Assembly: GCF_000003605.2 (NCBI RefSeq)
Contig: NW_003113961.1
Location: 25,138 to 56,886, forward strand
Origin: Saccoglossus kowalevskii
Lineage: Eukaryota; Hemichordata; Enteropneusta; Harrimaniidae
Length of the DNA stretch: 31,749 nucleotides
Direction: 5' to 3'
How positions within the stretch are numbered: the first letter of the stretch is position 1; the number at the start of each line of letters is the position of its first letter. The notes under the pieces are model-generated. The model did not search any database. It saw only the letters and a list, made by a program, of their open reading frames with translations, and was not told the origin of the DNA. Made by a program: the position numbers and the translations under genes. This document shows positions 6,485-31,749 of this stretch, one piece after another.

Positions 6485-7357
6485 CGAACCTTGGCTGGCG
6501 AAGATGTATCAGGAAGTGTACACATTTGTTGGAAGTGAAAAAAATATTCAAAAATTGTAAAATGCTGTGGAATTTCTTTTGTAAATAAAAAAAAAATTTA
6601 TTAATGGTTTATTCAAGTGGGCAAAATTTAATGTACAGAAAGATTGCCCGTGGATTATCGCTACACTGAAAAGTAAGCAACCGACAGTCTGTATAAAAGG
6701 GGGCTGTGATTGGCTGTTACTTACGCGAGTGGGACTTACATAGGCATCGGGTCAGATCCTTGTTTGCTTTCGCAATTACCAACACTTCAAAAAATAAATA
6801 CTAGATCAAAATAAAATAAAATAAATATACAAAAAAATGCCAAAACTAGGATCTTATTTTAATCAGATTGGGCTCCACCATATCTCAGGTAGATAATCTA
6901 TTAATTCATGGAGCTCCATTATTACAGTGAGTAGCCTTCAACAAGACTGACCTCCAACAATATGATTGAAAGTTCTGGAGCCAAACTTGCATGTAGAGCG
7001 AGTTAAAGATGTGTAATGCATTATTCCATTTTTTGCTTTTAACAGTGCTACCTATAAATTCTACTTCACGTAAGTGACATCTTGGCAATGTAAGGTCGGC
7101 TTCAGTGAAATCGGATCATGTATATGCGAGTGTGTGCCAGTGTGCCAAAACTGGTAAAATTTGGTACATACCGTAGACACCATATAATAAACTCCAGACC
7201 TGGTTAGATTGTGGTACAAATCAATGCATATTACTTATGTAATTAACATAACAATTAACCAAATTTTAAAAGTGCATTAAAATTTGGTTCATGCTTGCTG
7301 CTTTTCTAGATGAATGTCTAATAGTTTTGAATTATTCTGTGCACATTAATTAACCAA
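6485..7357. other. Non-coding AT-rich stretch
   Basis: Contains A-rich tracts (near 6587 and 6790-6840, the latter with several AATAAA-like runs). No coding region or RNA gene is seen. Confidence 0.5.
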
Positions 7358-7867
7358 TTTGCCAATTACCAGATTGTTTATTTCATACATTAGTTAGCTC
7401 AACTGGACCAGGTATCTGTAGATTGAGTTACTGGAAACACAGCATTTACTGGTATTTTATTTGCCAATTACCAGATTGTTTATTTCATACATTAGTTAAC
7501 TCAACTGGACCGGGTATCTGTAGATAGAGTTACTGGAAACACAGCATTTACTGGTATTTTATTTGCCAATTACCAGATTGTTTATTTCATACATTAGTTA
7601 GCTCAACTGGACCGGGTATCTGTAGATAGAGTTACTGGAAACACAGCATTTACTGGTATTTTATTTGCCAATTACCAGATTGTTTATTCCATACATTAGT
7701 TAGCTCAACTGGACCGGGTATCTGTAGATTGAGTTACTGGAAACACAGCATTTACTGATATTTTATTTGCCAATTACCAGATTGTTTATTTCATACATTA
7801 GTTAGCTCAACTGGACCGGGTATCTGTAGATTGAGTTACTGGAAACACAGCATTTACTGGTATTTTA
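7358..7867. repeat. 102-bp satellite, five copies
   Basis: Copies start with TTTGCCAATTACCAGATTG at 7358, 7460, 7562, 7664 and 7766, so the period is exactly 102 bp. Copies differ at only a few positions (for example GATTGAG versus GATAGAG), so the array is homogenised or young. It lies downstream of the MBOAT7 3' end. Confidence 0.95.
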
Positions 7868-9100
7868 TTTGACCTAATAAGTTAGCTAAAGTTATTTCAT
7901 GCATACTGTTTGAGTAGTTGCAAGACTGATATTTGTTTTAGCATTTTAATTAGATAATTTGCATACTGGAACTTCCAATATAAGTGTACTGGTATCTTTG
8001 AAAGAGAGAGCGCAAGCATGTAAGACTTGCATACAGTTTCTTATTTAATTTTTGGTGTTATTTTTTCAATAAATTAAATATGTGAGTCTATAAATGGCGA
8101 AAGCTGGGTTACCAAAAAATTATTTCGACATAACCCGACTTTCTTTATTTACACACAAATATGAAAAAACACCAAAAAATAAACAAGAGACTGTATGCAA
8201 GTCTACAGGCATGTACATAGTCTATATCATGTATGCAATAATACATTTTACAAGTGAAGTATCACATGATTTAATGGTGAAAATAATTAAAAACTGGTAC
8301 ATTTGTCTTATCAAAAAATCAGATTTCCATTTAAAAAGAAATTGCAATATGATGATATCTTTTAGAACTGGTCATTTGTGACCAGGACTAATAATATTAT
8401 GTGAAGCACAACTGTATATAATTCACACAATGAAAGTTTACCTGTATATACATAACAGTACCAACTTTACAATGTACTAGTATAAATAATAATTAATAAA
8501 ATAATTACAAATAATTTTGACACATTTTGACACAGTGTACATTCATACAGATCACATTATCATATATTTTTGTACATCAATAATAGATATAATGATGATA
8601 TTTGGAAAATTTCAACTGATATTTCTACTGTGAATGGGCAGCTCTGCTGAAATTCAGGTTATAGTGTTACATACAAAAAGAATCAATCTTTTGATTGGCT
8701 TGTGAACAAATTACAAATTCATACAACAATTATTCATGTGATCAGAAATTGTAAAACTCTGTCATGCTGTTTCACAGCCACTATTTGTATTGAAAATTCA
8801 AACTAAAAACACCAGGGTTACTTTCATGATGAACAGAAGCAAATTAGATGTGAATTTAATAAATAAATACACTTCACTGTACCGGGATACTTCCAAGATT
8901 ACATTCTTCTAATTGTTCAGTGATGCTCGCAGCGTTGCCATGATAAAATATAATCAGAAAATTCTGAGGGTGGTTCATCTTTAGTTTTATCTTTAGAAAT
9001 TCTCTTGACAAAAGATGACATTATATGATACTAACAATCACAATGCCACTACTATGGATATAAAGGGAGTTTACAGTCACAGTAGATTCTATGTTTTGTT
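7868..9100 (-). other. Probable 3' UTR and downstream region of MBOAT7
   Basis: No intron signals or protein motifs are seen in this stretch after the MBOAT7 stop codon. A minus-strand AATAAA (plus-strand TTTATT at 8144-8149) is one possible poly(A) signal, which would give a 3' UTR of about 0.95 kb. The true end cannot be decided from sequence. Confidence 0.35.
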
Positions 9101-9458
9101 TTATTTCTCTTTCTTTGCCTCATCAGTTTGGCTATCCAATTTCTTCTTCCTTGGTTTGAACAAGGTGCCAAATAGAATGAATATTGCACTATAAGCATGA
9201 CCAATAAAATAAGTTGACTTCCAGTAATTAAGTGTATAGTCCATCTTAAGCAGCAGAAAACCCATGGATAAATATTCAAAACTGCGCATACGGAAAAACC
9301 AGTTGAGCCAATCAAAGATCTTTTCGTTACTCGGTCTACGGAATGCTTTGATCATGACATCTTCTGCCATCAGTATAATAGGTACAGTCATGAAGCTGAG
9401 GTAATAGCCAGGGTGAATACCATGCCAAAACGCGCTCACCAGCATTGTCAAAGATGTT
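9101..9458 (-). CDS. MBOAT7: MBOAT7 terminal coding exon 6 (residues 344-462)
   Basis: Acceptor TATTTTACAG at 9459-9460. Encodes SAFWHGIHPGYYLSF with catalytic His356, then further helices and a charged tail ending EAKKEK before TAA at 9103-9101. The terminal KKEK fits an ER-retrieval dilysine signal. The exon is separated from exon 5 by a 5.3-kb intron full of repeats. Confidence 0.95.
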
Positions 9459-12400
9459 CTGTAAAATAACAAGCCTTTGTTAATGATGCAGTCCCTGTTG
9501 AAATTAGGAGAAATTGTATTCATGCCTAAGATAAAGTAATACCAGTTTAGTCAAAAAATAAGATGTTTGCAGCAAGTCTGTCTTTTACCTAATGATAAAT
9601 TGAATTGTTATGGACATGTATTGCCACATGCATAACACATGCAATCAAACTGAATATGCAAATCACTGGCCATGTGGCCAGGTAAATTGTTTCCGAATAA
9701 ATTAGAAGTGCATAGACAGTAATAGACTAATGTAGTATCAACAAAATTCAGATTTATTGCAGGACAATTTGCAATCTACTATATGATCATAAATACAAGT
9801 AAAGTTCATGTCTCCACTATTGTAAACGTGAGCTAGCTTATTCATTATGGTGTTACCAAATGACACTGTTTCTAGCAATGTTTTCATGGTGGGAATTAAG
9901 GCACTTGGCAATTTGCTGAGAATGAAGCAGAAGTCAAATATGAATGTGTACCAAGTGACTAACATCATGCATATACAACTTTGACAACTCACACCCATAG
10001 TTGTAATCTGTTGTACGAGTTAGGAGGAAATGTTTCCACTCATGAATTCATTTGCACCCAGACTCAGTTATGTTATCCTAAATGATCTATGTTCATGTTT
10101 TTATATATATTTTGAATTTTTGACATTTAATACAAACTTTGAAAGAAATTCTTACAAATAAACATAGGCATCTATTATGATGAATGTGACGAAAATATGA
10201 AACTGAACACTAGACCAGCTCTGATCGAATCATGTATCCCTGCAAGCCAGAAAGCTATCTTTAAACAAATAACATGACAATATATTATTACATATGTACT
10301 GCAGTTTATTTTGATTCGTCCCTGAAATCAAAATTGGTATTTCCACACCCCATATGCAAATGAGGTCTGAGAGCAAACATAGTACCGTAAAATCTGTATT
10401 AGAAACCTGCATCCCTAATAGAAGTCGCATCCATTCTATTTGAATAATTGAGAACCAAAAATTCATCATTTCTCATATGTGTAGATGCTCTAATAGAAGC
10501 CGCATCCCCTCTGTTGCATTGTACCATTTTAATAGAAGCCGCGGCTTCTAATACAGATTTTACAGTAGTCCCTTTAGGAGTATCGTTTTTCAAAACATAG
10601 CAAAAATAAACAATATTTAGAAGTACAATATTTTCCCTTTGGGGTACATGAATATACTTGCCGAGGGGAATGAAATTTGAACATGAGTAATGGTACTTAT
10701 TTTGACTAAAACTAATTTGCATATCACCCATGCAATAATGTTTTCGGTTTTTTCACGGTCAATATGCAAATGAAAATGGTATTTCCATGGGCTACCAAAC
10801 TATTTTTATTTGTTAAGCGTATTTTCATCTGCTATCTTTGTCCGGTTCAAATAGTTCAGCAACATTTTTGGCATGCTAGGTATACATCTCATGGAATACT
10901 ACGATTGGGAGAACTTAATGCATGTTGACCACCTCGAAATTGAGTTATATAAACCTTGAAGGGCTCTCGTAAGATCCACCCACAGTTAAATCAATGATTA
11001 CTATGAAGCCGCAATCATCAACAACGAGATACCATGAGGTTTCTGCTGGCGACGTTGCGGCGTTACTCAGCTCCAAATAAAGATTATCAAAGCCAAATGA
11101 GCAACGTTTTAACCGGTAACCAAGACTCATTCAATCCACGACCAGCAAGCAACATCACAAATGAAGTTGTAGCGTGACACTTTATCTAAATTAAGATTTT
11201 GTTAATTCATGCCAAGAGTCAAATCCGCTAAAATTGCATGCAGCTATTTCAACATGTTCTACAGAATTATGCCATAGGCATATATTTAGGCTTGGTGACA
11301 TAGAATGAAAAAAATTTATATTGTAAATGGTGGGGTACCTTTTGTTAGTCTCAATAATTTTAAAAATCTGGGTTTAAAAAAGTGGCAAAATCAGCCATTT
11401 TGAATACATAGCTCCGCTGTTAGCAAGGCACATTTCAATTAAAGAACAGAAGATATCCTTAGAAAATGAACAATATGTATAGTATGTATAGCAATCGGAC
11501 TTGCTGTTTTCAACAAGAATTCAAAAATATCACTTTTTATCAAAAATTACAAAAATATTCACCAAAATTAGTTAATTGAAGATATCATCACAAAATGAAC
11601 AAATCTGAGACAGGTCAACATGTAGTACCTATATATGTAGTATCAAAGCAATCAGACTTGCGGTTTTTAACAAGAAGTCGAAAATATCACTTTTTACCAA
11701 AAATTACAAAAATATTCACCAAAATTAAGGAATTTAAGATATCACCATGAAATGAACAAATCTCAGAAACGTCCACATGTAGCATCTATATATGTAATAT
11801 CAAAGCAATTGAACTTGTGGTTTTTAACAAGAAGTCGAAAATATCACTTTTTACCAAAAATGACAAAAATATCCACCAAAATTAGAGAATTTAAGATATC
11901 ATCACAAAATGAACAAATCTGAGAAAGGTCCACATGTAGTACCTATATATGTAATATCAAAGCAATTGGACTTGCGATTTTTAACAAGAAGTCGAAAATA
12001 TCACTTTTTACCAAAAATTACAAAAACATTCACCAAAATTAGAGAATTGAAGATATCATCGCGAAATGAACAAATCTGAGAAAGGTCCACATGTAGCATC
12101 TATACATGCAATATCAAAGCATTTTGACTTGCGGTTTTTAACAAGAAGTCAAAAATATCACTTTTTACCAAAAATGACAAAAATATTCACCAAATTTAGA
12201 GAATTGAAGATATCATCATGAAATGAACAAATCTAAGAGAGGTCTACCCCAGGTACATACACACCAAGTATCAAAGCATTCAGGCTTGTAGTTTTCAAGA
12301 AGAAGTTGAAAAAATAAAACATTGACACGGACGACGACGGACGGAGGGACGACGACGGACAATCACTCATATGATAAGCTTTGCTCGACAAAGTCGACAG

Positions 12401-15400
12401 CGGAGCTAATAACATGATGTATAACGAATATATAAAATTTGAATATAATCAGTCAAAGCATTTAAGAGATATGGCTCTAGAAGCCCAATCATTAAAACAA
12501 AATGACCACCAGTCAGCTATTTTGAATCCAATCTGAAAAATAAAATGACATGCATCAGGAACCTATAATGTCTAATGTATGTTATAAGTTTGAACAAAAT
12601 CCATCCTTAAATGCAAGAAATGCTTGATATTTGATGTATAATGAATATTAAAAATTTGAACATAATCAGTCAAAATAAGTCAGACGTTCATTAAAACAAA
12701 ATGTCCGCCAGACAGCCATTTTGAATCTGATCTGAAAAATAAAATGACGTGCATCAGGAACCCATAAAGGTCTCATGCCACTAATTAACCAATGGCTGCT
12801 CATAGCCCTCAATTTAAATGCCTAGCAGGAACCAATGACATTTTTTAATGTTATTATTCTCAGGTGTTCCCTGTTTGAATGCACGATCACCTGGGTCAGA
12901 GGTGAGACTAACATGTGGTCTTTTGTTTACTACTTAGCGGCTGTGTACCTGTGGGATTATTCCGTGTGTATTTGGATGTTCTAATCTTGGTGTTTTCCCA
13001 GGGATTTCTCTAGGTGCAGTCCAAATACAGTAGGTGTGTCTTGTTTACCTGAGTTTTGCAAAAGTTTGAGCTGGCCAACATGTGTGTTTTTTTCATTTGG
13101 TTGATTACAGGCATGTTGCTTTCCCATTTTAGAGCTATGTTTTCAACTTTGTTTATTATTTTCATATAGCAATCTCATCATATGTTAACATTGTCGTCTA
13201 TGGAGTTTTAATTAGTGGTATGAGCACATAATGTCTAATGTATGTACCAAGTTTGAACAAAATCCATCCATAAATGCCAGAAATGCTTGATATTTGATGA
13301 TTTTTTAGCACAAAAATGACCACCATTCTGCCATTTTGATTAGGATCGTCAAACCAATATATCTGTCTATCTATGACATAATGTATAATGAATATTTAAA
13401 ATTTGAACATAATCTGTCAAAACAAGTCAGAGATATAGGTCTAGAAGCCCATTCATTAAAACAAAATGGCCACCAGTCGGCCATTTTGAATGTTATCTGA
13501 AAAACAAAATTATTTGCATCAAGGTCCCATAATGTCTAATGTATATACAAAGTTTGAACAAAATATATCTGTAAACAGCCGGGAAATGCTTGATTTTGAT
13601 GATTTTTAGCACAAAAATGGTAGCCATTCGACCATCTTGAATCAGATCGTGAAACAAAATTGATGTGCATATGTATAATATCATATATGATGTATGTGTG
13701 AAGTTTGAATGTGATTGATACAGATACACACTGTTCGAACGGGCACTAAAAACAGAGTAATTATTTAACAATAAATCATATAATCCATTGTTTGAAGTAA
13801 AAGAAATATCAAACAAAGTTATTGAACAAAATTATTAAACATAATTATTACACAAAATCATGCTGAAAGTTATTTATCAATTTCAGTGTATGTGTAGTTT
13901 AGCATAAATGCAATACTCTGAATTTAGCAAGTACAACTTATAAAGAATTAATTTAATGTACGTAACCATTTCAAAGATTATTCAAACTTCAAATTAGAGA
14001 CTAATTTAAGTTTGTTTTGTTTTTTCCCATGTACATCGTACGTGCTAATGTGAATTACAGATTTGTTTCCACTACTTTAAGTACTGTAAAATTTGTATTA
14101 GAAATCCTGGCTTCTATTAAAATGGTACAATGCAACAGAAGGGATGCGGCTTCTCTTAGAGCATCTACACATATGAGAAATGGTGAATTTTTGGTTCTCA
14201 ATTGTTCAAAAAGAAGGTGTGCAGCTTCTACGGTAATAGTGTAATGATGCTTGTATTGATAGTGGCCATTTTGTCAGTATTATAACTTTTTATGTAATAA
14301 TATATTTTCATGTTATTTGTTTGAAGATGGCTTTCTGGCTTGCAGGGATACATGATTGGATCAGAGATATTATGCTGAAAAAATTATATATTGTGAATGA
14401 TTAGGTTATTTTCGGTGTACTGAATTATTTCAAAAATGTGGGTTTTAAAAAGAGTCATTGTGTTCTTAGGAATTGTTCTAAAAATAGCGATTTTTGAAAA
14501 ATATTAGGATAAATTTTTCAAAATACATCACTGTAACACACAAAAGAATGCTATTTCATTGTGCCATTGTACGATTGTACATAATAAATCGATGAACGTT
14601 GTCGTTCTATTTTTGACAAACTTTCTCTAAAATACGCTTCTAAGTACCCAGAGTCTTGTAAAGTAAACTGCAACATGAAGGATGTCATTAATACATTTAT
14701 GTCATTTATTTACCTCCATGCTTTACTTGGCACTCGTCTGTATATGTAGTTCGCCAACCACCACTGTACCGTCATATTCCAATATCTCATGGCATCTCGA
14801 AATGAGCTAGTGAAGTCACACTTGTATCCATTGATATTATTAATGGTTTCAAAACTATAATAATCATCAGAGCTAGTGTCTTTTTCTCTGTAATTTAAGA
14901 AGTTCAAAATGCATAAGATTAAGTACTGCTTAAGATGGTGAAGATAAATATTGATTAAACAAGAACACCAATATACAATTATAATAATTTTGAATTTTTC
15001 AGGATGACTGATCACAAATACAGCCAAAACAAAGTCACCTTGGATTTTCAGTTGTGAGACACGACAAAATAAATGCAGCCAATGATACATTTCGAGAATA
15101 AAAAAACAAAATAATACTACATATTCAAGTATTCAACTTTCTGATAAAAAAACGTGATTAGTATCAGCAACAATTTCTAGTACTTCTTGGATAATTGTGA
15201 ATTATTAGTTGTCATCAGACATATCCCTCAATAGGATTTTTTTAACAATGTCTTCAAATTTCTGAAAGAATGTTTGAATAATTTGAGGTGAATATGAATT
15301 GAATGCCCATATGATCTAAAAATTCAGCTAATAGTTCATCAGCACGATTATGGTGAATTAGTGAGTTATCAACGACGATGACGTCTCCGGTCATGAGCAG

Positions 15401-18400
15401 AGTTTGCTGCGTCATGGAAAATTTTGAAAACAAATCTGTGTCAGGGGAAACCTTGACGATGTTTGCATGGCAAATCCCATGTTAATTAGCTATTTTTGAT
15501 TGACATTCAATGAGATCGTTTGAACTTTGAATTTGATGGCTGGTTCAAGTTTATCCACTGTGTTTTTCCGTTGTCAATGTAATCAATATAAGTGCATTGG
15601 GAAATAGCATAATTTTATTGGGTGAGAGAAAGAAGCTGGTGAGACTGTGTCCCAATGTGTTCTATTCATTTCCAATGCATGTGGTCGGTGCCTTTGATTG
15701 CGTTTATTTTGTATTTGTATTTTTCGAAATGTATCACTGGCTGCAATTGTTTTGTCATGTCTCGCAACTGAAAGTCCAAGCTGACTTTGTTTTAGCTGTA
15801 ATGCAATAAATATTCACAAATGATTTCAAAATGATTAGTATACAATGCAAGAGTTATTTTTTTTTTTTTTTTAGATCAGGACACGCAAGATAACTCTTAC
15901 CTATTTTTTGGTAGTTCAACAGTTGGTCCTTGTGCACACTTGGGAAGGGTGTCTTTGGGATATGCTCCAAGAGTTGCCATGACGCAGATACACTCAGAGA
16001 GCACCCATGCTGCATACATGCGAGTACGAAACACAAAGAACATTGGAACCATGAAGAAAGTTTTGAACCAGTAACTGTAGGAGAAGAACTCATCAGTCAC
16101 AGCAATGTCTATTGTGATGTAGTGTGAAGATACAATAAACATAGACCCATAGAGGGCAGCAAACTTTAGTCTATCAAAGAGCGGTCCCATTGTGTCTATT
16201 TTGCTGGATTTCTCATTGTGGATCATATCATAGTATGTTTTGTATTTGTAGTAAGGACCTGTAATAAAACACATTAACGATTACAATTTTAATGAAAGAA
16301 AATAAGACATCTTGATTTTATTGCATTAATGCTTACAGGTTCACTTATACCAACACTGCAACAAGTCCCAGATGCAGATTTCTACTCAATCCTCTATGCA
16401 AATCAGTTGGATTCAATGGTTTCAGAGAAGACATGATTTTATCTGTCATGGATAACTGTATCACTTAAACTATAGTAAAATGTTTTTCATGATACATATA
16501 TATGCATGATTTTCTGTATGCATAGTGAACTAGATCAATATTGTTGGGTTCAGTGGTTTCAGAGAAGATATGACTTACCTGTCATAATACCAATATAACA
16601 GTATGCATTGTGAAATAGATCAATATTGTTGGGTTCAATGGTTTCAGAGAAGACATGACTTACCTGTCATAATACCAATATAACAGTATGCATTGTGAAA
16701 TATATCAATATTGTTGGGTTCAATGGTTTTAGAGAAGACATGACTTACCTGTCATAATACCAATATAACAGTATGCATAGTGAAATAGATCAATATTGTT
16801 GGGTTCAATGGTTTCAGAGAAGACATGACTTACTTGTCATAATACCAATATAACAGTATGCATAAAGAAATATATCAATATTGTTGGATTCAATGGTTTC
16901 AAAAAAGACATGACTTACCTGTCATATTACCAATATAACAGTATGCATAGTGAAATAGATCAATATTGTTGGGTTCAATGGTTTTAGAGAAGACACGACT
17001 TACCTGTCATAATACCAATATAACAGTATGCATTGTTAAATAGATCAATATTGTTGTGTTCAATGGTTTCAGAGAAGACATGACTTACCTGTCATAATAC
17101 CAATAAAACAGTATGCATTGTTAAATAGATCAATATTGTTGGGTTCAATGGTTTAAGAGAAGACATGACTTACCTGTCATAATACCAATATAACATTATG
17201 CATAGTGAAATAGATCAATATTGTTGGGTTAATGGTTTCAGAGAAGACATGACTTACCTGTCATAATACCAATATAACAGAATGCATTGTGAAATAGATC
17301 AATATTGTTGGGTTCAATGGTTTTAGAGAAGACATGACTTACCTGTCATAATACCAATATAACAGTATGCATAGTGAAATATATCAATATTGTTGGGTTC
17401 AATGGTATCAGAGAAGACATGACTTACCTGTCATAATACCAGTATAACAGTATGCATTGTGAAATATATCAATATTGTTGGGTTCAATGGTTTTAGAGAA
17501 GACATGACTTACCTGTCATAATACCAATATAACATTATGCATAGTGAAATAGATCAATATTGTTGGGTTCAATGGTTTTAGAGAAGACATGACTTACCTG
17601 TCATAATACCAATATAACAGTATGCATAGTGACATATATCCATAACTGATGGCTCATCTATAATGACTACAATTCTGGGTTTTTTATCACTATCTTGAAT
17701 TGGAGGATTAATCTTTGCGGCATATGAATCATGGATCTCAAACGTCATGCCAACCATCTAGAAATAATTAAGAGATTTTTACACTACCCTGTAATCATTG
17801 TACTTGCATAGTAACTTCAAGTTTCAAGAATATCTGTGTTTTAAATCTGAAGAAAAAAATAACCTTACAAAGTTTAGCACACACATGTTTGGCCTTTTGA
17901 TTCTGACTTAATCTGGTTGTGGAAATTGTAGACATTTAGTATTTTGTTCATTTATGACATGCATGCTTGGCACTTTAGTTCCCAAATTTTCATCTGGCTT
18001 TAGCCATGATAACCTTTTTGCATGTTGCCATCTTTACATTTATAACTTCAACTGTTGAAGCCTGGCATGAATGCCATATTTTTTTACTTTTTTGTGACTT
18101 TTTTGCTCTTGAATGCAGCTGTGGCATACATAGGTAAAATCTGGCTCAATGAATGAATTCTGTTTGTATTTGTAGAAATCACTTGAAATCAAAAGTTTCA
18201 GTATTTTGCCCTCAATATTACAGTTGCCAGTGACTGATTTACCTAATCTTATTTATTTAGCTGTGTTTCAGTTTTATGATTTTGTAGACACAAGCGTATA
18301 TTTTATGGGGTCAAAAATATTTGTATTTATAAAAAAAAAAATAGAAATGTCCAGATTACCTGGAAAATTTTGATCAGGATGTTATGTTTCTAGCAATGCT

Positions 18401-21400
18401 TAGATACAGCGCTATAATGTTGTCTCTAGGTTCAGGCTAGGTTAGGCTAGGTTAGGCTATGTTCAACATCATTATCCTTCAAGTCATTATGGAGCTGTGT
18501 GTCATGGCATTATATATGTATCGCAAGGTGCTATCCTTGTATCAACCAATTCAGGTTGAACACAATCCACTGTGCACAGTAATGTAGACAATAAGGTAGA
18601 TCACATGACAATTGTCATTGGGTTATTAAGTGCATGCATGGAGCTAAAATCCCCTGGTAACATAAATAAAAATAAAATAACATTCTGCTGTAATGTTACA
18701 GTGTTACATTACAATACAATGCAATGTTAAAGCACAATTAGCCATTTTTGTGGGAAAAAAGCTGGTGAACCAACATTCATATATTGACCGAGTGTAAAAT
18801 GACTTTATAAAATATTTGCAGCTTGCAAATCCATAACTGGGGCCAGTAATTTTGCAATGCCACCTTTCATCACAGCTATTGCATTTCTGTCATGAAAATT
18901 ATTCTTCTATCGTTGGAAAAATAAAAATTCTCTCTATTTCAAGCCCACCGCAATACCCATATAGTGAGATATTCCAACCTCCACAACTTGCTGAATGATA
19001 ACTTTGACCATGATTGATGAGCGTCTCGTCTGATAAGAAAGCATGATTTGACCTTATGATGAAACACTAGTAGTGATGTCATTCTTAGCCAATCAGTAAA
19101 GCAGATGTTTAAAGATGATTGAAAGACTGTAAAACAAAAGCATCGTGTGTCATTGCAGCAGAGTTGTTTGCCGCAACCCCATTTTTCGTGTCTCTTTATT
19201 GTGATTAGACATGAATTAAAAGTGCCAAGCTGAGTAAAAGTAAAGTGAAGTAAAAGTCAAAATTGTGTGCAACAACATCGACAAACTTTAGGACGAAGCT
19301 GTAGGGATTTTGTTCAGTGGCAACACTGCAGTGACGCCGACTTGGACTTTGGAGGTTTAACTTTAATGAAGATGGTGATGAAGTACAAATAGAGATCTGA
19401 GAAATGTTTCCTATGAACTTTTGTAATTTTTACTGTTCAGCAGTCTTTGTAAACCAACTGCATTCAAACCAAATAATATTAAATCGTGAGCAAATAGTAA
19501 GTAAAACAACTTAGGTAAACTAACATATACACCTGAAAATCGATGCTTCAAATAGTCACCAAGTTTGTTTATAAACAAAGCAAACAAAAGAAGTGACACG
19601 ATAGAACTGGGTTGAACCCCACATAGACATTTAAACGTTTCCATTACCCCTTTTGGGCCTCATACACAAGACTTTATATTTTTATACATAGACTGTAAAA
19701 CTTTGAAAAAGCGACCATGAAGACCAATTTTTAGCAATTTAAAGATTAACATATAATGATTAATATGGTTGAATGCTTTTACAAAATTGACAAACACACA
19801 ATAAAGTCTGCTCTTAGGAGTAAAATATCTATTTATGACAATGTTTAATATAAACATATTATCTAGTGAAATCTTGATTTTCGTTCAAAGGACAATTTTT
19901 TTCAACCCGTTTGTTCAATCTGGTATAAATAATAGATATATATAATAGAAGCAAATATTTTACCCAGCAGTGACAATAATGTAATTTCCCTATACTTATT
20001 ACATTGTCAATTCCATCCTTTTTTGTGTAACGGTACAATCAACCCAATACCCAATCACATGGAAAGTAACCAGCAGAATATAACTTGAATAATTTAACTA
20101 GTAAAACTGTGATTTCAGTTATGATATGAAGTATTAAAAAAATCAACAATCAGGATTGCATCTGCTAACATCCCCAACAATCAGGATTGCATCTGCTAAC
20201 ATCCCCAACAATCAGGATTGCATCTGCTAACATCCCCAACAATCAGGATTGAATGTGTTAGCATTACCAATGATCAGGATTGGATACATGTACATGTAGG
20301 TTACATTGACAAATAAAAAATTAAAAAATTACAAGTCCCTCTTAAATCAAATTACTGTTCGGGTTTTCTATGAAATCATTACTCTCAACAAACGTTAGTA
20401 GCTACTCGGCTTAACACAGATAGGCACTCCAAACATTCTTGTGCCGATTACATTTTGGGTTATAAAAAAAACTTGCACTACAAATTATGAAACATTATGG
20501 CAACAAGACTCCCAATCAAAGCTGATCACATGACATAATTACAGATACAGAACATGACGTACATGAATCGATGCATTCAGCCTTTTGACAACTGTATCAA
20601 CAAAAACAGAAAAAAACCTACCTTGAGTGTGAGTAACAACTGCACAGCATTAGCGAATGAGGGAGGGTACGGCAAACCAATAAAATGAACCATACGAAAG
20701 AATGCAATATATCCAAAGCACCAAGCAAATGTCAGCTTGTGACAATGTCTGTAAACAATGTATGTAAATATGAGATGTCTAGCAATTACACAGGTTTTCT
20801 AGACAAATCTTAGATTGTTAGGCTCTATCACTGGTATACGAGAAGCCCAGAACCTTTAATTATTATTTTATTGTAACAATAACAGTATCATATTCAATGA
20901 GATTTCAAACCTATAAGAGATGTTATTTGCAATCTAAGACATAAGGAGTTTGTTAGACCAAAAAAAAGATTTGTTTCTGGTCCAAAGTTTCTTAAAAAAA
21001 TTTTGAGGTGACGCAATTTTTTTGAAAACATCAAAAAAGCCAATTTGGGAATGAACATTAACAAGTTATTAACTAGGAGCAGGCACATCTCACCTTTTTT
21101 TCTTTGCTTTAAATAAAAAAAAAGTTTTAAGTGGTGCCTATTGAACCATGGAGGTACAAAAATGTATAAACACCTTTGGCTTTAGCGTCATCAACAATGA
21201 AATTAATGTTGCAATATTGTAGCAACCCTTACCCAGGAGAGTGGTTGAAAGCATGTTTTTTTGGCTTCATGAAATATTTGGAGCAGCTTGCTAATCCATA
21301 ACTAGGGCAGGCAATTTTGCAATGTCACATCGATGACTTGACCTCAATGATGAAACACTAGTAGTTCTGCCAACCGTTAATTATTCATAAATGAAGTCAA

Positions 21401-22198
21401 TTTGTGCAGTTTTCTTGATTTATTCTGCAGATATAGGTAAAATATAGGTAAGGCTTTGGCGAAATTTGAAAGAACAACTAATATTCTTCAACCTGGTGTT
21501 TTTTATAGATTTTATTTTTCATTCTGTTCATCTGTTTTTTACAGTTTAAAAAATATGAGCTTGGTGGAGCCTTCATCCCCTGTCTATTTCTTACACTAGA
21601 TACCAGCCGATACACCACCACCCCCCACCCCCCACTCATAGGGACTGCGTGGGTTGATCATAGTTTCTGGGCTCCCTGTGATACATGTACAATTAGTTGT
21701 TTACAGTAATTTATTTAACAGATGTAACATAAATATCTATATGAACTGAATGCTCACCCACCAAACACCAGTGTAGCACATTTTAATTTTATAGTATTTT
21801 TTTCCTAGTTCAAATCATGGAAGTACAAATGAACTCGAAATAAATGGCCTTGATACCGAAACAAAGGTATCAGAGTTGCAGGCTGATCTGCTGGCTTTTA
21901 TCTAATTGCTGAATGATGACGTGGTTGCTATGGTAATTTAGGTGATGTGTTGTCATTCGTCCATGGACGTATGAACCATGACCTACCTCCAGCCCGCTAC
22001 CTTGACGATCACACATGTCCCAATAGTTGTGACAATTGAATGTAGAATGTGGTAATGGCATAGTGACGCAACCAAGGCGATTCCCACACTACTGCTGACT
22101 ATCTTTTTACTGGTTGGACTTTTAGCATGTTTTACTAAATGGCCTACTGGCAGAGAAAATAGCAGAACACACATATAAATGAACTCATCCGGCGACAT
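9101..22198 (-). CDS. MBOAT7: MBOAT7, lysophosphatidylinositol acyltransferase (six coding exons)
   Basis: Membrane-bound O-acyltransferase 7 (LPIAT1) of the Lands cycle transfers an acyl group, preferentially arachidonoyl, from acyl-CoA to lysophosphatidylinositol in the ER membrane. Coding exons on the minus strand are 22198-21987, 20748-20622, 17757-17598, 16258-15901, 14887-14714 and 9458-9101. All introns are GT-AG and phases match at every junction, giving 462 residues against 472 in human. The protein opens with MSPDEF, like the vertebrate start MSPEEW. Family blocks follow in order: FANAVQLLLTLK (about 102-113), YCYIGIMTGPYYKY (about 159-172), MRYWNMTVQWWLANYIY (319-335, with the conserved Asn323) and FWHGIHPGYYLSF (354-366, with the catalytic His356). 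It is strongly hydrophobic throughout and ends in KKEK, a KKXX-type ER retrieval signal. No stop or missing key residue was found, so it should be functional. Confidence 0.95.
10383..10567. mobile_element. 185-bp MITE-like element with 22-bp terminal inverted repeats
   Basis: The left end TACCGTAAAATCTGTATTAG is the inverse of the right end TTCTAATACAGATTTTACAG apart from one mismatch in 22 bp. A second copy lies inverted at 14082-14234. No transposase is encoded, so it is non-autonomous. No clear target-site duplication beyond TA can be assigned. Confidence 0.75.
11411..12406. mobile_element. Non-autonomous DNA element with TIRs, TA target site and internal 157-bp repeats
   Basis: Ends are GCTCCGCTGT at 11411 and its inverse ACAGCGGAGC at 12397-12406, flanked by TA on both sides (11409-11410 and 12407-12408), as for TA-targeting DNA transposons. 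Inside, a unit of about 157 bp (marker GATATC at 11452, 11581, 11739, 11895, 12052, 12209) is repeated about five times with modest divergence; the first interval is shorter. A GACGACGACGGACGG tract lies near the right end. No transposase reading frame is present. Confidence 0.75.
12410..13720. repeat. Array of a 200-300 bp repeat with AAAATGGCC and GGCCATTTT motifs
   Basis: Recurring blocks are ATAATGTCTAATGTATG (about 12567, 13228, 13530), TTTGAACAAAATCCATCC, TTGAACATAATC and CATTAAAACAAAATG followed by GCCATTTTGAAT. Copies are diverged and some have internal deletions. The array is split by an insertion at about 12768-13226. Confidence 0.75.
12768..13226. mobile_element. Short TIR element inserted into the repeat array
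   Basis: The host repeat breaks at CCCATAA (12767) and resumes at CATAATGTCTAATG (13227), giving a CATAA direct duplication. Just inside, CTCATGCCACTAATTAA at 12772 is the inverse of TTAATTAGTGGTATGAG ending at 13224, with one mismatch in 17. It has no coding capacity. Confidence 0.7.
14082..14234. mobile_element. Second copy of the 185-bp MITE-like element, end-deleted
   Basis: Matches the reverse complement of 10383-10567 over the whole body (shared ATGGTACAATGCAACAGA and CATCTACACATATGAGAAAT). The right terminal repeat is cut down to TTCTACGGTA. The downstream 14235-14375 also matches the inverse of 10215-10382 in part (GGCTTTCTGGCTTGCAGGG), so both copies sit in a larger shared unit. Confidence 0.75.
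14365..14645 (-). repeat. Dispersed repeat family R1, inverted copy
   Basis: Matches the reverse complement of 24803-25290 and 30110-30590 (shared TGAATTATTT, GGGTTTTAAAA, TTGAAAAATATTAGGA and GATTGTACA). A shorter relative is at 11255-11400. Confidence 0.65.
14714..14887 (-). CDS. MBOAT7: MBOAT7 coding exon 5 (residues 286-344)
   Basis: Acceptor AAATTACAG, donor GTAAAT at 14713. Encodes YYSFETINNINGYKCDF and RDAMRYWNMTVQWWLANYIY, the block carrying the conserved Asn323. Phase fits both neighbours. Confidence 0.94.
14985..15110 (-). repeat. Left arm of intron 4 inverted repeat
   Basis: Pairs with 15705-15845 as an imperfect inverted repeat. The core on this arm (minus strand) is ATGTATCATTGGCTGCATTT and CTGAAAATCCAAGGTGACTTTG. 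The other arm has the same on the plus strand, with about 10-15% differences. Confidence 0.7.
15705..15845 (+). repeat. Right arm of intron 4 inverted repeat
   Basis: The plus strand carries ATGTATCACTGGCTGCAATT and CTGAAAGTCCAAGCTGACTT, matching the inverse of 14985-15110. The two arms sit near the two ends of the 1-kb intron between MBOAT7 exons 4 and 5. Confidence 0.7.
15901..16258 (-). CDS. MBOAT7: MBOAT7 coding exon 4 (residues 167-286)
   Basis: Acceptor TTATTACAG, donor GTAAGAG at 15900. Encodes PYYKYKTYYDMI, several membrane helices (including VPMFFVFRTRMYAAW) and the loop LGAYPKDTLPK. A 20-odd-base poly(T) tract on the plus strand lies just downstream in the intron. Confidence 0.94.
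16400..17642 (-). repeat. 85-bp satellite built from the MBOAT7 exon 3/intron 3 junction
   Basis: Thirteen copies in register, with the exon-end base at 16579, 16664, 16749, 16834, 16919, 17004, 17089, 17174, 17258, 17343, 17428, 17513 and 17598. The single 84-bp step is a one-base deletion near 17230. The copy at 17598 is the real exon end. Each unit, read on the minus strand, holds about 45 nt of exon (CACTATGCATACTGTTATAT and GGTATTATGACAG) plus the donor GTAAGTCATG and about 30 nt more of intron. A further decayed copy at about 16410-16470 has lost the donor GT. The array fills almost all of intron 3. Confidence 0.97.
17598..17757 (-). CDS. MBOAT7: MBOAT7 coding exon 3 (residues 114-167)
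   Basis: Acceptor TTTCTAG, then ATGGTTGGCATG in phase 0. The exon ends ATG ACA G before the donor GTAAGT (17597). Encodes MVGMTFEIHDSYAAKIN to YAYCYIGIMTG. The last 45 nt of this exon and the first 40 nt of the intron form the final copy of the 85-bp satellite that fills the intron. Reading past the donor gives a stop after G-K-S-C-L-L. Confidence 0.93.
18430..18462. repeat. 10-bp minisatellite AGGTTAGGCT
   Basis: About three perfect units of TAGGTTAGGC followed by a diverged one. Confidence 0.8.
18765..19090 (+). repeat. Dispersed repeat R2, copy 1
   Basis: Shares GCAGCTTGC.AATCCATAACT, AATTTTGCAATG.CAC and ATGATGAAACACTAGTAGT with 21225-21400 in the same orientation. This copy has about 150 extra bases between the two conserved blocks. 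Confidence 0.65.
19411..20100 (-). pseudogene. LINE (CR1/jockey-like) reverse transcriptase relic
   Basis: Non-LTR retrotransposon reverse transcriptase fragments in order on the minus strand: IVPLHKKG and ITLLSLLGKIF (about 20040-19950, frame-broken), LNENQ, LYCVFVNFVKAFNHINHYML (19808-19749, the RT motif where DF.KAFD is expected), LLKIGLHGRFFKVLQSMYKN, then LCGVQPSSIVSLLLFALFIN and LLFAHDLILFG (about 19540-19500). The catalytic YADD box is FAHD here, so the enzyme is dead, and stops and frame changes separate the parts. It lies in MBOAT7 intron 2 in the same orientation as the gene. Confidence 0.88.
20145..20295. repeat. 31-bp tandem repeat, about 4.5 copies
   Basis: The unit TCAGGATTGCATCTGCTAAC plus ATCCCCAACAA recurs at 20150, 20181, 20212 and 20243, with a decayed copy at 20274. 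Confidence 0.92.
20622..20748 (-). CDS. MBOAT7: MBOAT7 coding exon 2 (residues 71-113)
   Basis: Preceded by TTTACAG and followed by the donor GTAGGT. Encodes HCHKLTFAWCFGYIAFFRM and then GLPYPPSFANAVQLLLTLK, a block typical of MBOAT7. Ends in phase 0. Confidence 0.93.
20749..21986 (-). other. MBOAT7 intron 1
   Basis: A 1.24-kb intron with a copy of dispersed repeat R2 at 21225-21400 and a C-rich tract at 21612-21638 (CACCACCACCCCCC). No coding motif was found in its open stretches. Confidence 0.88.
21225..21400 (+). repeat. Dispersed repeat R2, copy 2
   Basis: Matches 18765-19090, with the two conserved blocks directly adjacent here. Ends near GTTAATTATTCATAA. Confidence 0.65.
21987..22198 (-). 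CDS. MBOAT7: MBOAT7 coding exon 1 (residues 1-71)
   Basis: Starts at ATG 22198 and encodes MSPDEFIYMCVLLFSLPVGH followed by two further hydrophobic helices. It ends in TGG AG before the donor GTAGGT at 21986. The start is chosen because it aligns with the MSPEEW start of vertebrate MBOAT7. The final AG joins the first base of exon 2 to make Arg71. Confidence 0.92.
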
Positions 22199-24177: not shown

Positions 24178-27100
24178 GTAAGAATAATATGACAAACTTT
24201 GACATAAGCTCTGACTGCCACGTAATACATATACACATGTGCCAATAATATGTACACAAAAGGTGTGGTCAAGTCGTGTCAATGTTTACATACAGTGTTT
24301 GTCGCATTAAAACACTTATTGAATAGGTTACATTTGCAGAAAACAAGCGATACATTTGTTGTGGTACTTCTATTTTTTTGTAAAACCATATCATACAATG
24401 GAATGCCATCTTCATGAAATAAATCAAGTTTAGAGGGTTCTATCAGCATCTCTGCTTTATTCCTGGTAATCGTGTAGTAATTTTGTACAAATCGTAACGA
24501 TTTTAGATTAAAATTTTCAAATACAACCAAATACTTAACGACAAGTGACTAAATATCGAGAAAGTCAGCAATAATTTGATGAAAGTGCTGTTCGAAGTAC
24601 ACAATAACATTTGTGGAGTATGCATGTTGCCTTTTATATACTGAAACATTGGGAATGGTGATAATCAGATATTGAAGACGAAATAGGTCCTCTGTGTGCA
24701 GCACTAATAAATACGCATTATATGCAAATCACTAGTAGTTAGTATAACAATGCATTCAATGCGAGTATTATTGGTACATTGCTGTAAATAACACAATTGT
24801 CTGTCTACTCATAATATTTTAGGAAGTTGGTCATAAATCGCATGACAATGTTCATTGGTTTACTGTGTACAATCATGAAGCTACTGTCCCATGTCAAAAT
24901 AAAATAGATCTTTTTTTGAGAAACTTGTCCTAATATTTTTCAAAAACCGTCCTAATATTTTTCAAAATTGTTTAGACATTTCCATAGTCTAAGAATACGA
25001 TGTTAAAAATTGCATTTCAACATATTTTAAAACCCAGATTTGTTAAATAATTCAGGACAGCAACAAGTACCATGAGATTAGCATTTTTTCAGCCTATGTC
25101 ACAAACCTGGAATTTAAGCTATGGCATAACATTCCTACCATAGGCCAAAATATGAACAACCAACTAAAATACAGCATACATTTTCTCCAAAATTAGGCTG
25201 GTTTCCCCCATTTTTTTCAAGCCAATAGCCTTATATTGACCTGGAGTACATTATATCGTAAAGTTCCAAGTCAATATCGAACACAACACAACGACTTCGA
25301 CGCTTTGATGGTCTGCCAATTATGTTTACTCTATTAAGCCTATTTGAAATTTTGTTTATGAACTTGCTTTAAATTAACGGAAATAGCCTTTGATAAATGC
25401 ACAGACAGCAGTTTTTTGTATTGCGGCTTGGTTTTAGTAGGGCAATTATTAAATTAGTTGTTTTGTAAATCAACCTTCATGAATACATGTATCGAAGAAA
25501 CGAACAAAAAAGTTATGAATTAATCTCATTATCTGACGATGCAAGGTTTACTGGGTTTAAGAAATATCAAATACTTCTACATATATCCTACACACGCAAC
25601 GGTTTTATTTGAGAGTGTGTCTTTTAATATTTAATGTTTGTTTGTATAAACAAAAGCATCAAACATATCAATACGACCCGAATATTCAGACTTCACAGGA
25701 CAATATCAGTATCTAAACTGCAGTGTCAGTACACTGATGCCCAGACTGCAGTGTCAGTACACTGATTCCCAGACTGCAGTGTCAGTACACTGATGCCCAG
25801 ACTGCAGTGTCAGTACACTGATGCCCAGACTGCAGTGTCAGTACACTGATTCAATGACTGCAGTGTCAGTACACTGATTCTCAGACTGCAGTGTCAGTAC
25901 ACTGATTCCCAGACTGCAGTGTCAGTACACTGATTCCCAGACAGCATGCAGTGTCAGTACACAGATTCCCAGACTGCAGTGTCAGTACACTGATTCCCAG
26001 ACTGCAGTGTCAGTACACTGATTCCCAGACTGCAGTGTCAGTACACTGATTCCCAGACTGCAGTGTCAGTATCCTGATTCCCAGACTGCAGTGCAGTACA
26101 CTTTTTCCCAGACTGCAGTGTCAGTACACTGATTCCCAGACTGCAGTGTCAGTACACTGATTCCCAGACTGCAGTGTCAGTACACTGATTCCCAGACTGC
26201 AGTGTCAGTACACTGATTCCCAGACTGCAGTGTCAGTACACTGATGCCCAGACTGCAGTGTCAGTACACTGATTCCCAGACTGCAGTGTCAGTACACTGA
26301 TGCCCAGACTGCAGTGTCAGTACACTGATTCCCAGACTGCAGTGTCAGTACATCGATTCCCAGACTGCAGTGTCAGTACACTGATGCCCAGACTGCAGTG
26401 TCAGTACACTGATTCCCAGACTGCAGTGTCAGTACACTGATTCCCAGACTGCAGTGTCAGTACACTGATGCCCAGACTGCAGTGTCAGTACACTGATTCC
26501 CAGACTGCAGTGTCAGTACACTGATGCCCAGACTACAGTGTCAGTACACTGATTCCCAGACTGCAGTGTCAGCACACTGATTCCCAGACTGCGGCCATTT
26601 CCGTTATAAAACTGTGTATTTGACGATGGCGACGAGGACGTATAATTAAACCTATAAACCCGCTTTCAAAACAATCTATACACACTAAATACTGTAGTGT
26701 TTTATCGTGAAATTGTTTAAAATCGTTGATTTCTGCCCATATTTCTTCTGCTTTGGAGATCTATTTAGCGTTCACCCTATGTACATGATTTGTATGAAAT
26801 GAGCAATGATGGAAGTGACATTGAAAAACATCATACTGTTACAAGACAATCTGGACGCATAGCTAATTGTTGGAATGCCCAGTTTGGGTTTATGGGATGC
26901 AAGATAGTTTTTGGTATATATGACATGCATTTTTGTAGGCACAAAATATATGTGGGAATCACAAAATAATTCTAGCCAGGAAGGGCACCTGACAAATTGA
27001 CACTATCCTAGGTAAGACCCCTAAAGTAATATTACACTTTAAATTGATCTCATCAGACATCCCCCCCTCCGCAAGCATTTATAATTAAAGCAACCGAACC

Positions 27101-31268: not shown

Positions 31269-31749
31269 ATGCCGACATACGCGAATTCGTGTATTTTTGA
31301 TGAAAATTGTAAAACGCTTCGAGCACAGCCTTGCGCCCTCTATGCAGAAATTAGAAAATCTGATGCCATTATAACAAGTGACAATTTTATGGATCACTTT
31401 AATAAGCTATATAATAATAATAACATAAAGAATAATAAAATTGACCAAGACTTATTAGCAAAGGAGGACTTAAAAAACTACAATGCAGTGTTGAACGAAG
31501 AGATTAAAAAATCATGAAGTGATGATATTCAACACAAGTAACAGAGTACTGAAAAACCAAACTTTTATTGTAGATGGTAAAAACATAACACCAGTCAAGG
31601 AGTTCTGTTATTTGGGTATGATATTCACTCCGAATGGAAAATTTAAAACAAACCATTGTATGCTAAAAAATAAAGCAATGAAGACAATATTTGCCATTAG
31701 ACAAACTATACTGGATCATAAAATGATTTCAACTTCATTGTGTTTAAAA
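31269..31749 (+). pseudogene. Internally deleted LINE open reading frame, runs off window
   Basis: 31269-31517 encodes the region between endonuclease and reverse transcriptase of a CR1/jockey-like LINE (SDNFMDHFNKLYNNNN, then LNEEIKK). From 31516, in another frame, the sequence is the C-terminal end of the reverse transcriptase (EVMIFNTSNRVLKNQTF, EFCYLGMIFTPNGKFK). All catalytic motifs, roughly 300 residues, are missing between the two, so this is a deletion derivative. It has the same orientation as the upstream gene and may lie in one of its introns. Confidence 0.85.

What the first reader, a model, noticed from the sequence alone, without database searches (positions are those of the whole stretch)
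16400..17642. A satellite made of an exon-intron junction: twelve decoy 5' splice sites next to MBOAT7 exon 3
Seen: an 85-bp unit repeats 13 times and the last unit is the functional exon 3 end. Each copy keeps the codons for the family motif YCYIGIMTG and the donor GTAAGT, so near-identical donors occur every 85 bp through intron 3. One copy (16834) has changed the last exon base and a decayed copy near 16440 has lost the GT. Inference: use of any decoy would retain the authentic donor region and meet an in-frame stop within seven codons, so either the spliceosome reliably picks the first donor or decoy use lowers MBOAT7 output through nonsense-mediated decay. Copy number would then be a tunable dial.
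Basis: partly seen in the sequence, partly recalled or inferred. Interest (0 to 1): 0.85.

Follow-up and report, generated by a model that had tools for sequence, protein, structure and literature searches.

The report
Tandem exon-intron junction array in MBOAT7
The junction between one exon and its intron has been copied about a dozen times in a row in a lipid-enzyme gene, a kind of array known from amphioxus ("mirages") and here seen in several genes of what is probably another kind of animal, which offers a natural test of how cells choose one cutting point among many equal ones.

Summary
The array is real: an 85-bp unit repeats 13 times at the exon 3/intron 3 junction of an intact six-exon MBOAT7 gene (minus strand). 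Twelve of 13 units carry CAG|GTAAGT, found nowhere else in the window; 6 of 13 keep YCYIGIMTG exactly. Any decoy gives a 172-aa truncation whose stop lies 65-999 nt before the new junction, an NMD-type transcript. The same 572-Mb genome has donor-edge arrays in LSS, ADAM17, CSN1, NAGA and ZCCHC8 genes, three unidentified coding-looking exons, and an acceptor-edge array in GATM. The kind is known: "mirages", exon-intron boundary minisatellites of amphioxus, where RT-PCR suggested undisturbed splicing. A COX1 contig reads ATA as Ile, so this is probably not a cephalochordate. Donor columns are not more conserved than the rest: decoys look neither kept nor purged. Best reading: a neutral mirage whose exon-contiguous donor is used. 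The copy-number dial has no support. Worth testing: in the six named genes 46 of 55 decoys read pair with U1 at least as well as the authentic donor, while a published statement has the intron-proximal of two comparable donors favoured.

The parts
21987..22198 (-). MBOAT7 coding exon 1 (from ATG)
20622..20748 (-). MBOAT7 exon 2
17598..17757 (-). MBOAT7 exon 3, whose 3' end belongs to the first unit of the array
15901..16258 (-). MBOAT7 exon 4
14714..14887 (-). MBOAT7 exon 5
9101..9458 (-). MBOAT7 exon 6, including the stop codon
   Evidence: the 462-aa protein matches 8erc (lysophospholipid acyltransferase 7), E 2.7e-125
16516..17644 (-). mirage-type array: 13 units of 85 bp (one of 84), each exon 3 end + donor + intron 3 start
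17592..17600 (-). authentic donor CAG|GTAAGT
17507..17515 (-). decoy donor 1, CAG|GTAAGT
17422..17430 (-). decoy donor 2, CAG|GTAAGT
17337..17345 (-). decoy donor 3, CAG|GTAAGT
17252..17260 (-). decoy donor 4, CAG|GTAAGT
17168..17176 (-). decoy donor 5, CAG|GTAAGT
17083..17091 (-). decoy donor 6, CAG|GTAAGT
16998..17006 (-). decoy donor 7, CAG|GTAAGT
16913..16921 (-). decoy donor 8, CAG|GTAAGT
16828..16836 (-). decoy donor 9, weakened: CAA|GTAAGT
16743..16751 (-). decoy donor 10, CAG|GTAAGT
16658..16666 (-). decoy donor 11, CAG|GTAAGT
16573..16581 (-). decoy donor 12, CAG|GTAAGT
16400..16460 (-). decayed 14th unit, GT lost (CAG|ATAAAATC)
   Evidence: limits judged by eye
17578..17580 (-). in-frame TAA met if any decoy is used

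Best explanation
It is a mirage: a minisatellite grown by tandem duplication of a stretch that happens to span the end of exon 3 and the start of intron 3. Unequal exchange or slippage (inferred) makes and homogenises units; the unit joined to the exon is held by selection on protein and splicing (inferred), and the far edge decays. The decoys are bypassed: the donor contiguous with the exon is chosen, probably because it is made first and is paired with the acceptor of exon 3 by exon definition (inferred), and the whole array leaves with intron 3. Shown here: array, gene, consequence of decoy use, no detectable selection on decoys within the array, and sister arrays in other genes. Inferred: which donor is used, and why.
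For: Intact 462-aa reading frame when the first donor is used. Donor columns vary in 1 of 117 cells, permutation p 0.23, and 19 of 85 nine-column windows vary as little; exon-derived columns vary like intronic ones (p 0.54 by types, 0.71 by cells). LSS, 16 of its 17 units counted: donor columns p 0.57, exon columns p 0.18-0.25. Decayed copy at the far edge of MBOAT7 and, by eye, of LSS. Similar arrays at donor edges of LSS, ADAM17, CSN1, NAGA and ZCCHC8 and at an acceptor edge of GATM in the same genome. In six searches of one design the donor word was no commoner in arrays than its reverse, give or take one match (26:25, 26:227, 23:220, 43:1074, 85:1018, 31:548), so arrays do not seem drawn to donors; these counts are dominated by single satellites. 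Published mirages: both boundary types, AG/GT kept in many units, haplotype length differences, RT-PCR suggesting no interference with splicing (PMC3087553, passages).
Against: No RNA evidence from this animal. A passage of PMC6002489 says that the intron-proximal of two comparable donors is favoured, which predicts the last decoy, not the first donor. Predicted local structure hides all 13 donors alike, so it does not explain the choice. One donor word, CAGGTGAGT, was commoner in arrays than its reverse (821:16; all rows shown are one satellite contig). The within-array test is weak because units are not independent. The published splicing evidence is from amphioxus.
Confidence: 0.76

Rival explanations
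1. NMD dial: a fraction of transcripts uses decoys, meets the stop after MTGKSCLL and is degraded, so that copy number tunes MBOAT7 output.
For: Every decoy leads to the same 172-aa product with the stop 65-999 nt before the new junction; 11 of 12 decoys equal the authentic donor in U1 pairing; an intron-proximal preference is stated in print (PMC6002489, passages).
Against: Donor columns show no extra conservation. In LSS the unit is in frame, so its first six decoys would insert 24-aa repeats instead of a stop: no common regulatory logic. Amphioxus RT-PCR suggests regular splicing.
Confidence: 0.12
2. Recursive ladder: each junction reads AG|GTAAGT and can serve as acceptor and donor (dual-specific site). 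Units are removed stepwise, or a wrong decoy-exon 4 joint is re-spliced from the first donor to the AG of the last retained unit, which restores the exact mRNA, so decoy use would be silent.
For: The only AGs of the consensus unit are at CAG|GT and in GTAAGT; a branch-like TTCAC lies about 33 nt upstream; one unit (17088) scores -0.57 as an acceptor, the same as exon 4's own (frequencies recalled). Dual-specific sites in UBC splice out whole repeat units (PMC10809524, sections read). Regenerated sites are re-spliced when the EJC is missing (PMC8184009, one section).
Against: Nine of 12 AG-bearing units score -2.69 (the others -2.32, -0.57, -4.82) against +0.97 to -2.32 for the gene's five acceptors, and 23% of 452 intronic AGs outside the array score as well. 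The EJC restrains re-splicing. A consensus donor contains AG anyway, so the feature is not special.
Confidence: 0.08
3. Assembly artefact: the array, or its length, was made by collapse or mis-joining.
For: The assembly has N gaps beside two other arrays; a published mirage was mis-assembled in the amphioxus draft (legend in PMC3087553).
Against: No N in the window; units differ by distinct substitutions and one deletion; several separate arrays of the same kind.
Confidence: 0.04

Closest known systems
Mirages of amphioxus (Adh3; globin genes BflGb6 and BflGb9), as described in PMC3087553 (passages; its source, Canestro 2002, is not held and was not read)
   Same: Tandem minisatellite spanning an exon-intron boundary; donor or acceptor side; many units keep AG/GT; authentic copy at the exon edge.
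   Different: Other genes; unit 85 bp and 13 units here (10-72 and 150-160 bp there); the mitochondrial code argues against a cephalochordate; haplotype variation and RT-PCR not available here.
Dual-specific splice sites in tandem repeats (human UBC, VCX3A; PMC10809524, abstract and sections)
   Same: AG|GT at each unit of a tandem array, so whole units can in principle be removed.
   Different: UBC units are coding, in frame, and their use is shown; the MBOAT7 units lie in an intron, are 85 nt (not a multiple of 3), and no use is shown.
Intronic ratchet points of recursive splicing in Drosophila (PMC8605326, search listing only; PMC8184009)
   Same: Juxtaposed acceptor AG and donor GT.
   Different: Those are described as conserved and in long introns; this intron is 1339 nt and its would-be acceptors score low.

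Membership tests
[quoted passage not shown]
Mirage (exon-intron boundary minisatellite) | Authentic exon edge forms the outermost unit and the gene stays intact | tested here: met
   462-aa frame
Mirage (exon-intron boundary minisatellite) | Splice signals kept in many units | tested here: met
   12 of 13 CAG|GTAAGT
Mirage (exon-intron boundary minisatellite) | Copy number differs between haplotypes or cells | not testable with these tools
   one assembly only; the matches all lie in contig C759
Mirage (exon-intron boundary minisatellite) | Regular splicing not disturbed | not testable with these tools
   no RNA data
Amphioxus origin (where mirages were described; not a defining feature) | Cephalochordate mitochondrial code, ATA = Met (recalled) | tested here: not met
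   COX1 on contig C4830: its nine ATA codons stand opposite L, V, I, I, I, V, I, I, M in one solved structure and L, V, V, I, I, V, I, I, I in another
Recursive / dual-specific splice site array | AG|GT at each unit | tested here: met
   12 of 13
Recursive / dual-specific splice site array | Usable branch point and polypyrimidine tract upstream of AG | tested here: inconclusive
   low score in most units, one unit level with exon 4's acceptor
Recursive / dual-specific splice site array | Observed use as acceptor | not testable with these tools
   no RNA data
Regulated NMD switch | Decoy use gives a premature stop more than 50-55 nt before a junction | tested here: met
   65-999 nt; the 50-55 nt rule is recalled
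Regulated NMD switch | Decoys conserved by selection | tested here: not met
   within-array test only; no relatives held

The most novel reading that the evidence does not exclude
Boundary minisatellites are a common load outside cephalochordates too, and show that in a living animal the exon-contiguous donor beats up to 15 equal or stronger donors downstream (in LSS CAA|GTAAGT against CAG|GTAAGT, in ZCCHC8 GTAAAT against GTAAGT), the reverse of the stated intron-proximal preference; a first-come or exon-definition rule, or silent repair through dual-specific junctions, would have to explain it.
Probability: 0.35. Interest if true: 0.75.

Novelty: new member of a known kind. Interest (0 to 1): 0.52.

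Why it matters
How one of several comparable 5' splice sites comes to be chosen is stated to be unknown in PMC6002489 (passage, citing Roca 2013). Arrays of near-identical donors at regular distances (13 units in MBOAT7, 17 in LSS), in several conserved genes of one genome, are a ready-made dose series: one long-read RNA data set could measure choice against position and strength without any construct. They also bear on how new introns arise (model in PMC3087553) and on annotation and assembly of repeat-rich genomes.

Tried and rejected
Selection on decoy donors: no signal in MBOAT7 or LSS. Secondary structure as selector: unpaired probability 0.0007 for the authentic donor, 0.0002-0.0016 for decoys. 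Higher-order structure: units nine apart are the most alike (mean 2.7 differences over three pairs, against 4.2-5.8 at other lags), too few pairs to build on. U1 telescripting: one AATAAA (16322) and one ATTAAA (16293) in intron 3, both beyond the array; not pursued. Acceptor words: TTTTGCAGG x3 gave 1 match (reverse 3), not followed; TTTTACAG x3 gave 943 (reverse 3347) with a cut listing, of which one, GATM, was followed. AGGTAAGT x3 gave 1205 (reverse 1663) with a cut listing, of which three loci were looked at. CAGGTGAGT x3 gave 821 (reverse 16), all listed rows from one contig, C43, not evaluated. C3574 (89 bp) looked exon-like and its first unit was not coding by eye. C3858 was guessed to be an acyl ligase and found no support. 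Papers: ten searches. None used the word mirage, which I met only afterwards; one search had already listed PMC3087553 and I passed it over. So I make no claim that mirages outside amphioxus are absent from print.

Full report
What is there. The window holds a complete MBOAT7 gene on the minus strand: six coding exons, five GT-AG introns, 462 aa, best solved match 8erc (lysophospholipid acyltransferase 7) at E 2.7e-125, Pfam MBOAT at 8.2e-31. Intron 3 (17597-16259, 1339 nt) begins with a tandem array, 85 bp x 13.3, 16516-17644. Each unit is about 47 nt of the end of exon 3 and 38 nt of the start of intron 3. The exon itself ends with the first unit, so one authentic donor is followed by 12 decoys every 84-85 nt and a decayed 14th copy. 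Twelve of 13 donors are CAG|GTAAGT, the full U1 complement (U1 letters recalled); the other is CAA|GTAAGT. No further copy of the 9-mer lies on either strand of the window; a first-order model expects 0.0034 in 1129 b. The authentic donor has the best U1 pairing of the gene's five (-12.1 against -6.9 to -10.4 kcal/mol).

Consequence of decoy use. Any of the 12 decoys retains the first intronic segment, meets TAA as the seventh codon and gives 172 aa ending in MTGKSCLL; the stop lies 65 nt (first decoy) to 999 nt (last) before the new junction, which by general knowledge makes NMD substrates.

Selection within the array. Over 85 columns and 13 units, donor columns vary in 1 of 117 cells; 19 of 85 nine-column windows vary as little, permutation p 0.23 (0.28 for the 12 decoys alone). 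Exon-derived columns vary as much as intronic ones (24 of 611 against 15 of 494 cells; p 0.54 and 0.71). So nothing shows that decoys are kept or removed; units are not independent, so the test is weak. Predicted accessibility does not separate the authentic donor from the decoys.

One of a class in this genome. The window lies in an unnamed 572-Mb assembly; all 12 listed matches to the array lie in its own contig (which scores only the best candidates). I searched the assembly for three spaced copies of CAGGTAAGT (gaps 30-60, 61-91, 92-122) and of AAGGTAAGT; these six listings are complete and fall in 24 contigs. Nine of 24 are arrays whose first unit is the end of a coding or coding-looking exon. 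Six are tied to a named protein: MBOAT7; LSS (C4504, 72 bp x 17; 1w6k, E 3.8e-60); ADAM17 (C3162, 77 bp x 10; 1bkc, E 1.5e-14); CSN1 (C1210, 82 bp x 9.9, nine donors read; 6r7f, E 3e-34); NAGA (C1375, 66 bp x 6; 1ktb, E 1.5e-55); ZCCHC8 (C3770, 66 bp, first six donors read; 7s7b, E 3.2e-14). Three have an open frame between splice signals and no database match (C3858; C2844; C4612). One (C808) is undecided because its first unit lies in an assembly gap. Of the other 14, some flank was read for four (C998, C1685, C2921; C3574); ten were seen only as the 80 letters of their rows, so nine of 24 is a lower bound. An acceptor-edge array exists too: in GATM (C255, 82 bp x 5.5; 1jdx, E 7.1e-42, no Pfam match at 0.1) five upstream copies, four of them with the acceptor AG, precede the authentic exon start. 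In the six donor-word searches the reversed word was about as common or commoner (26:25, 26:227, 23:220, 43:1074, 85:1018, 31:548), so nothing there suggests that arrays seek out donors; CAGGTGAGT stood at 821:16, all rows shown from one satellite contig. Match counts are dominated by single arrays and are a poor measure.

Strength of decoys. In the six named donor arrays 46 of 55 decoys read pair with U1 at least as well as the authentic donor: MBOAT7 11 of 12, LSS 15 of 16, ADAM17 5 of 9, CSN1 6 of 8, NAGA 4 of 5, ZCCHC8 5 of 5, the last cut by the end of the stretch. The ADAM17 decoys that fall short differ only beyond +6. In LSS the authentic donor is CAA|GTAAGT (-7.5); 11 of 16 decoys are stronger, eight of them CAG|GTAAGT at -14.0. 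In ZCCHC8 it is GTAAAT (-6.8) against GTAAGT (-12.5). In LSS the unit is 72 bp and the frame stays open through the first six decoys, so their use would insert 24-aa repeats rather than a stop.

Comparison with what is known. Tandem minisatellites of exon-intron boundaries were named mirages in amphioxus (Adh3, then globins): PMC3087553, passages, reports both boundary types, AG/GT kept in many but not all units, units of 10-72 and 150-160 bp, 6 against 3 units in two haplotypes of BflGb6, RT-PCR that suggests no interference with regular splicing, an unclear mechanism of origin, and a model of intron gain. The original report (Canestro 2002) is not held and was not read. The MBOAT7 array meets the structural features. 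The animal is probably not a cephalochordate: in COX1 of contig C4830 the nine ATA codons stand opposite I, V or L in two solved structures, Met once in one of them, so ATA reads Ile; that amphioxus reads it as Met is recalled, and that C4830 is this animal's mitochondrion is assumed. The window is 34.8% G+C. The species is not determined.

How it most likely works. Array growth is blind to function; only the exon-contiguous unit is constrained (inferred). Splicing then has to pick the first donor. A passage of PMC6002489 says that the intron-proximal donor is favoured between two comparable ones and that the reason is unknown. PMC8316553 (abstract and discussion) describes the nascent upstream donor held on Pol II by U1, which could favour the first, although the same discussion says introns are not removed first come first served. 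A lead only: TGCAT lies in 13 of 13 MBOAT7 units (rows), and in human reporters TGCATG and TGCAT between competing donors suppressed the intron-proximal one (PMC1877881, passages). A recursive ladder is conceivable because 12 of 13 units read AG|GTAAGT, as at the repeat borders of UBC (PMC10809524), but most units score low as acceptors, one (17088) level with exon 4's own, and the EJC restrains re-splicing (PMC8184009, abstract and one section).

Verdict. The copy-number dial is unsupported. The value lies in a natural test of donor choice.

Noticed in passing
L065 3390-4622 (G000:C4504:222500-232400): LSS gene carries a 72-bp x 17 donor array in an intron of 1416 nt; the authentic donor CAA|GTAAGT is weaker than 11 of 16 decoys by U1 pairing; the unit is in frame.
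   Followed up: yes
L071 750-1208 (G000:C255:168600-170600): GATM acceptor-edge array, 82 bp x 5.5, the mirror case with the authentic unit last.
   Followed up: partly
L072 330-700 and on (G000:C2844, contig of 10477 b): 101-bp unit with a coding-looking exon end and donor; matches run to 10437 of the contig, so perhaps about 100 units; gene unidentified.
   Followed up: partly
L073 306-882 (G000:C4612:261700-262900): 118-bp units with a C-rich tract plus CAG upstream and a donor downstream of an exon copy, so a unit looks like a complete pseudo-exon; gene unidentified.
   Followed up: partly
L070 596-892 (G000:C808:73600-75000): 55-bp donor-bearing array directly beside an assembly gap; its first unit cannot be read.
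   Followed up: no
window 25717-26592: 28-bp x 31 minisatellite, overlapping the most G+C-rich kilobase of the window (26001-27000).
   Followed up: no
window 7357-7871, 11490-12244, 13225-13659: Further tandem arrays (102 bp x 5, 157 bp x 4.8, 150 bp x 2.9); the last two lie inside MBOAT7 intron 5.
   Followed up: no
window 31495-31749 (+): Open frame that looks like part of a LINE reverse transcriptase (recalled impression); no Pfam match at E 0.1.
   Followed up: partly
L074 (G000:C4830): COX1 with nine ATA at Ile-like positions, nine TGA, no AGA/AGG and one AAA; may help to place the animal.
   Followed up: partly
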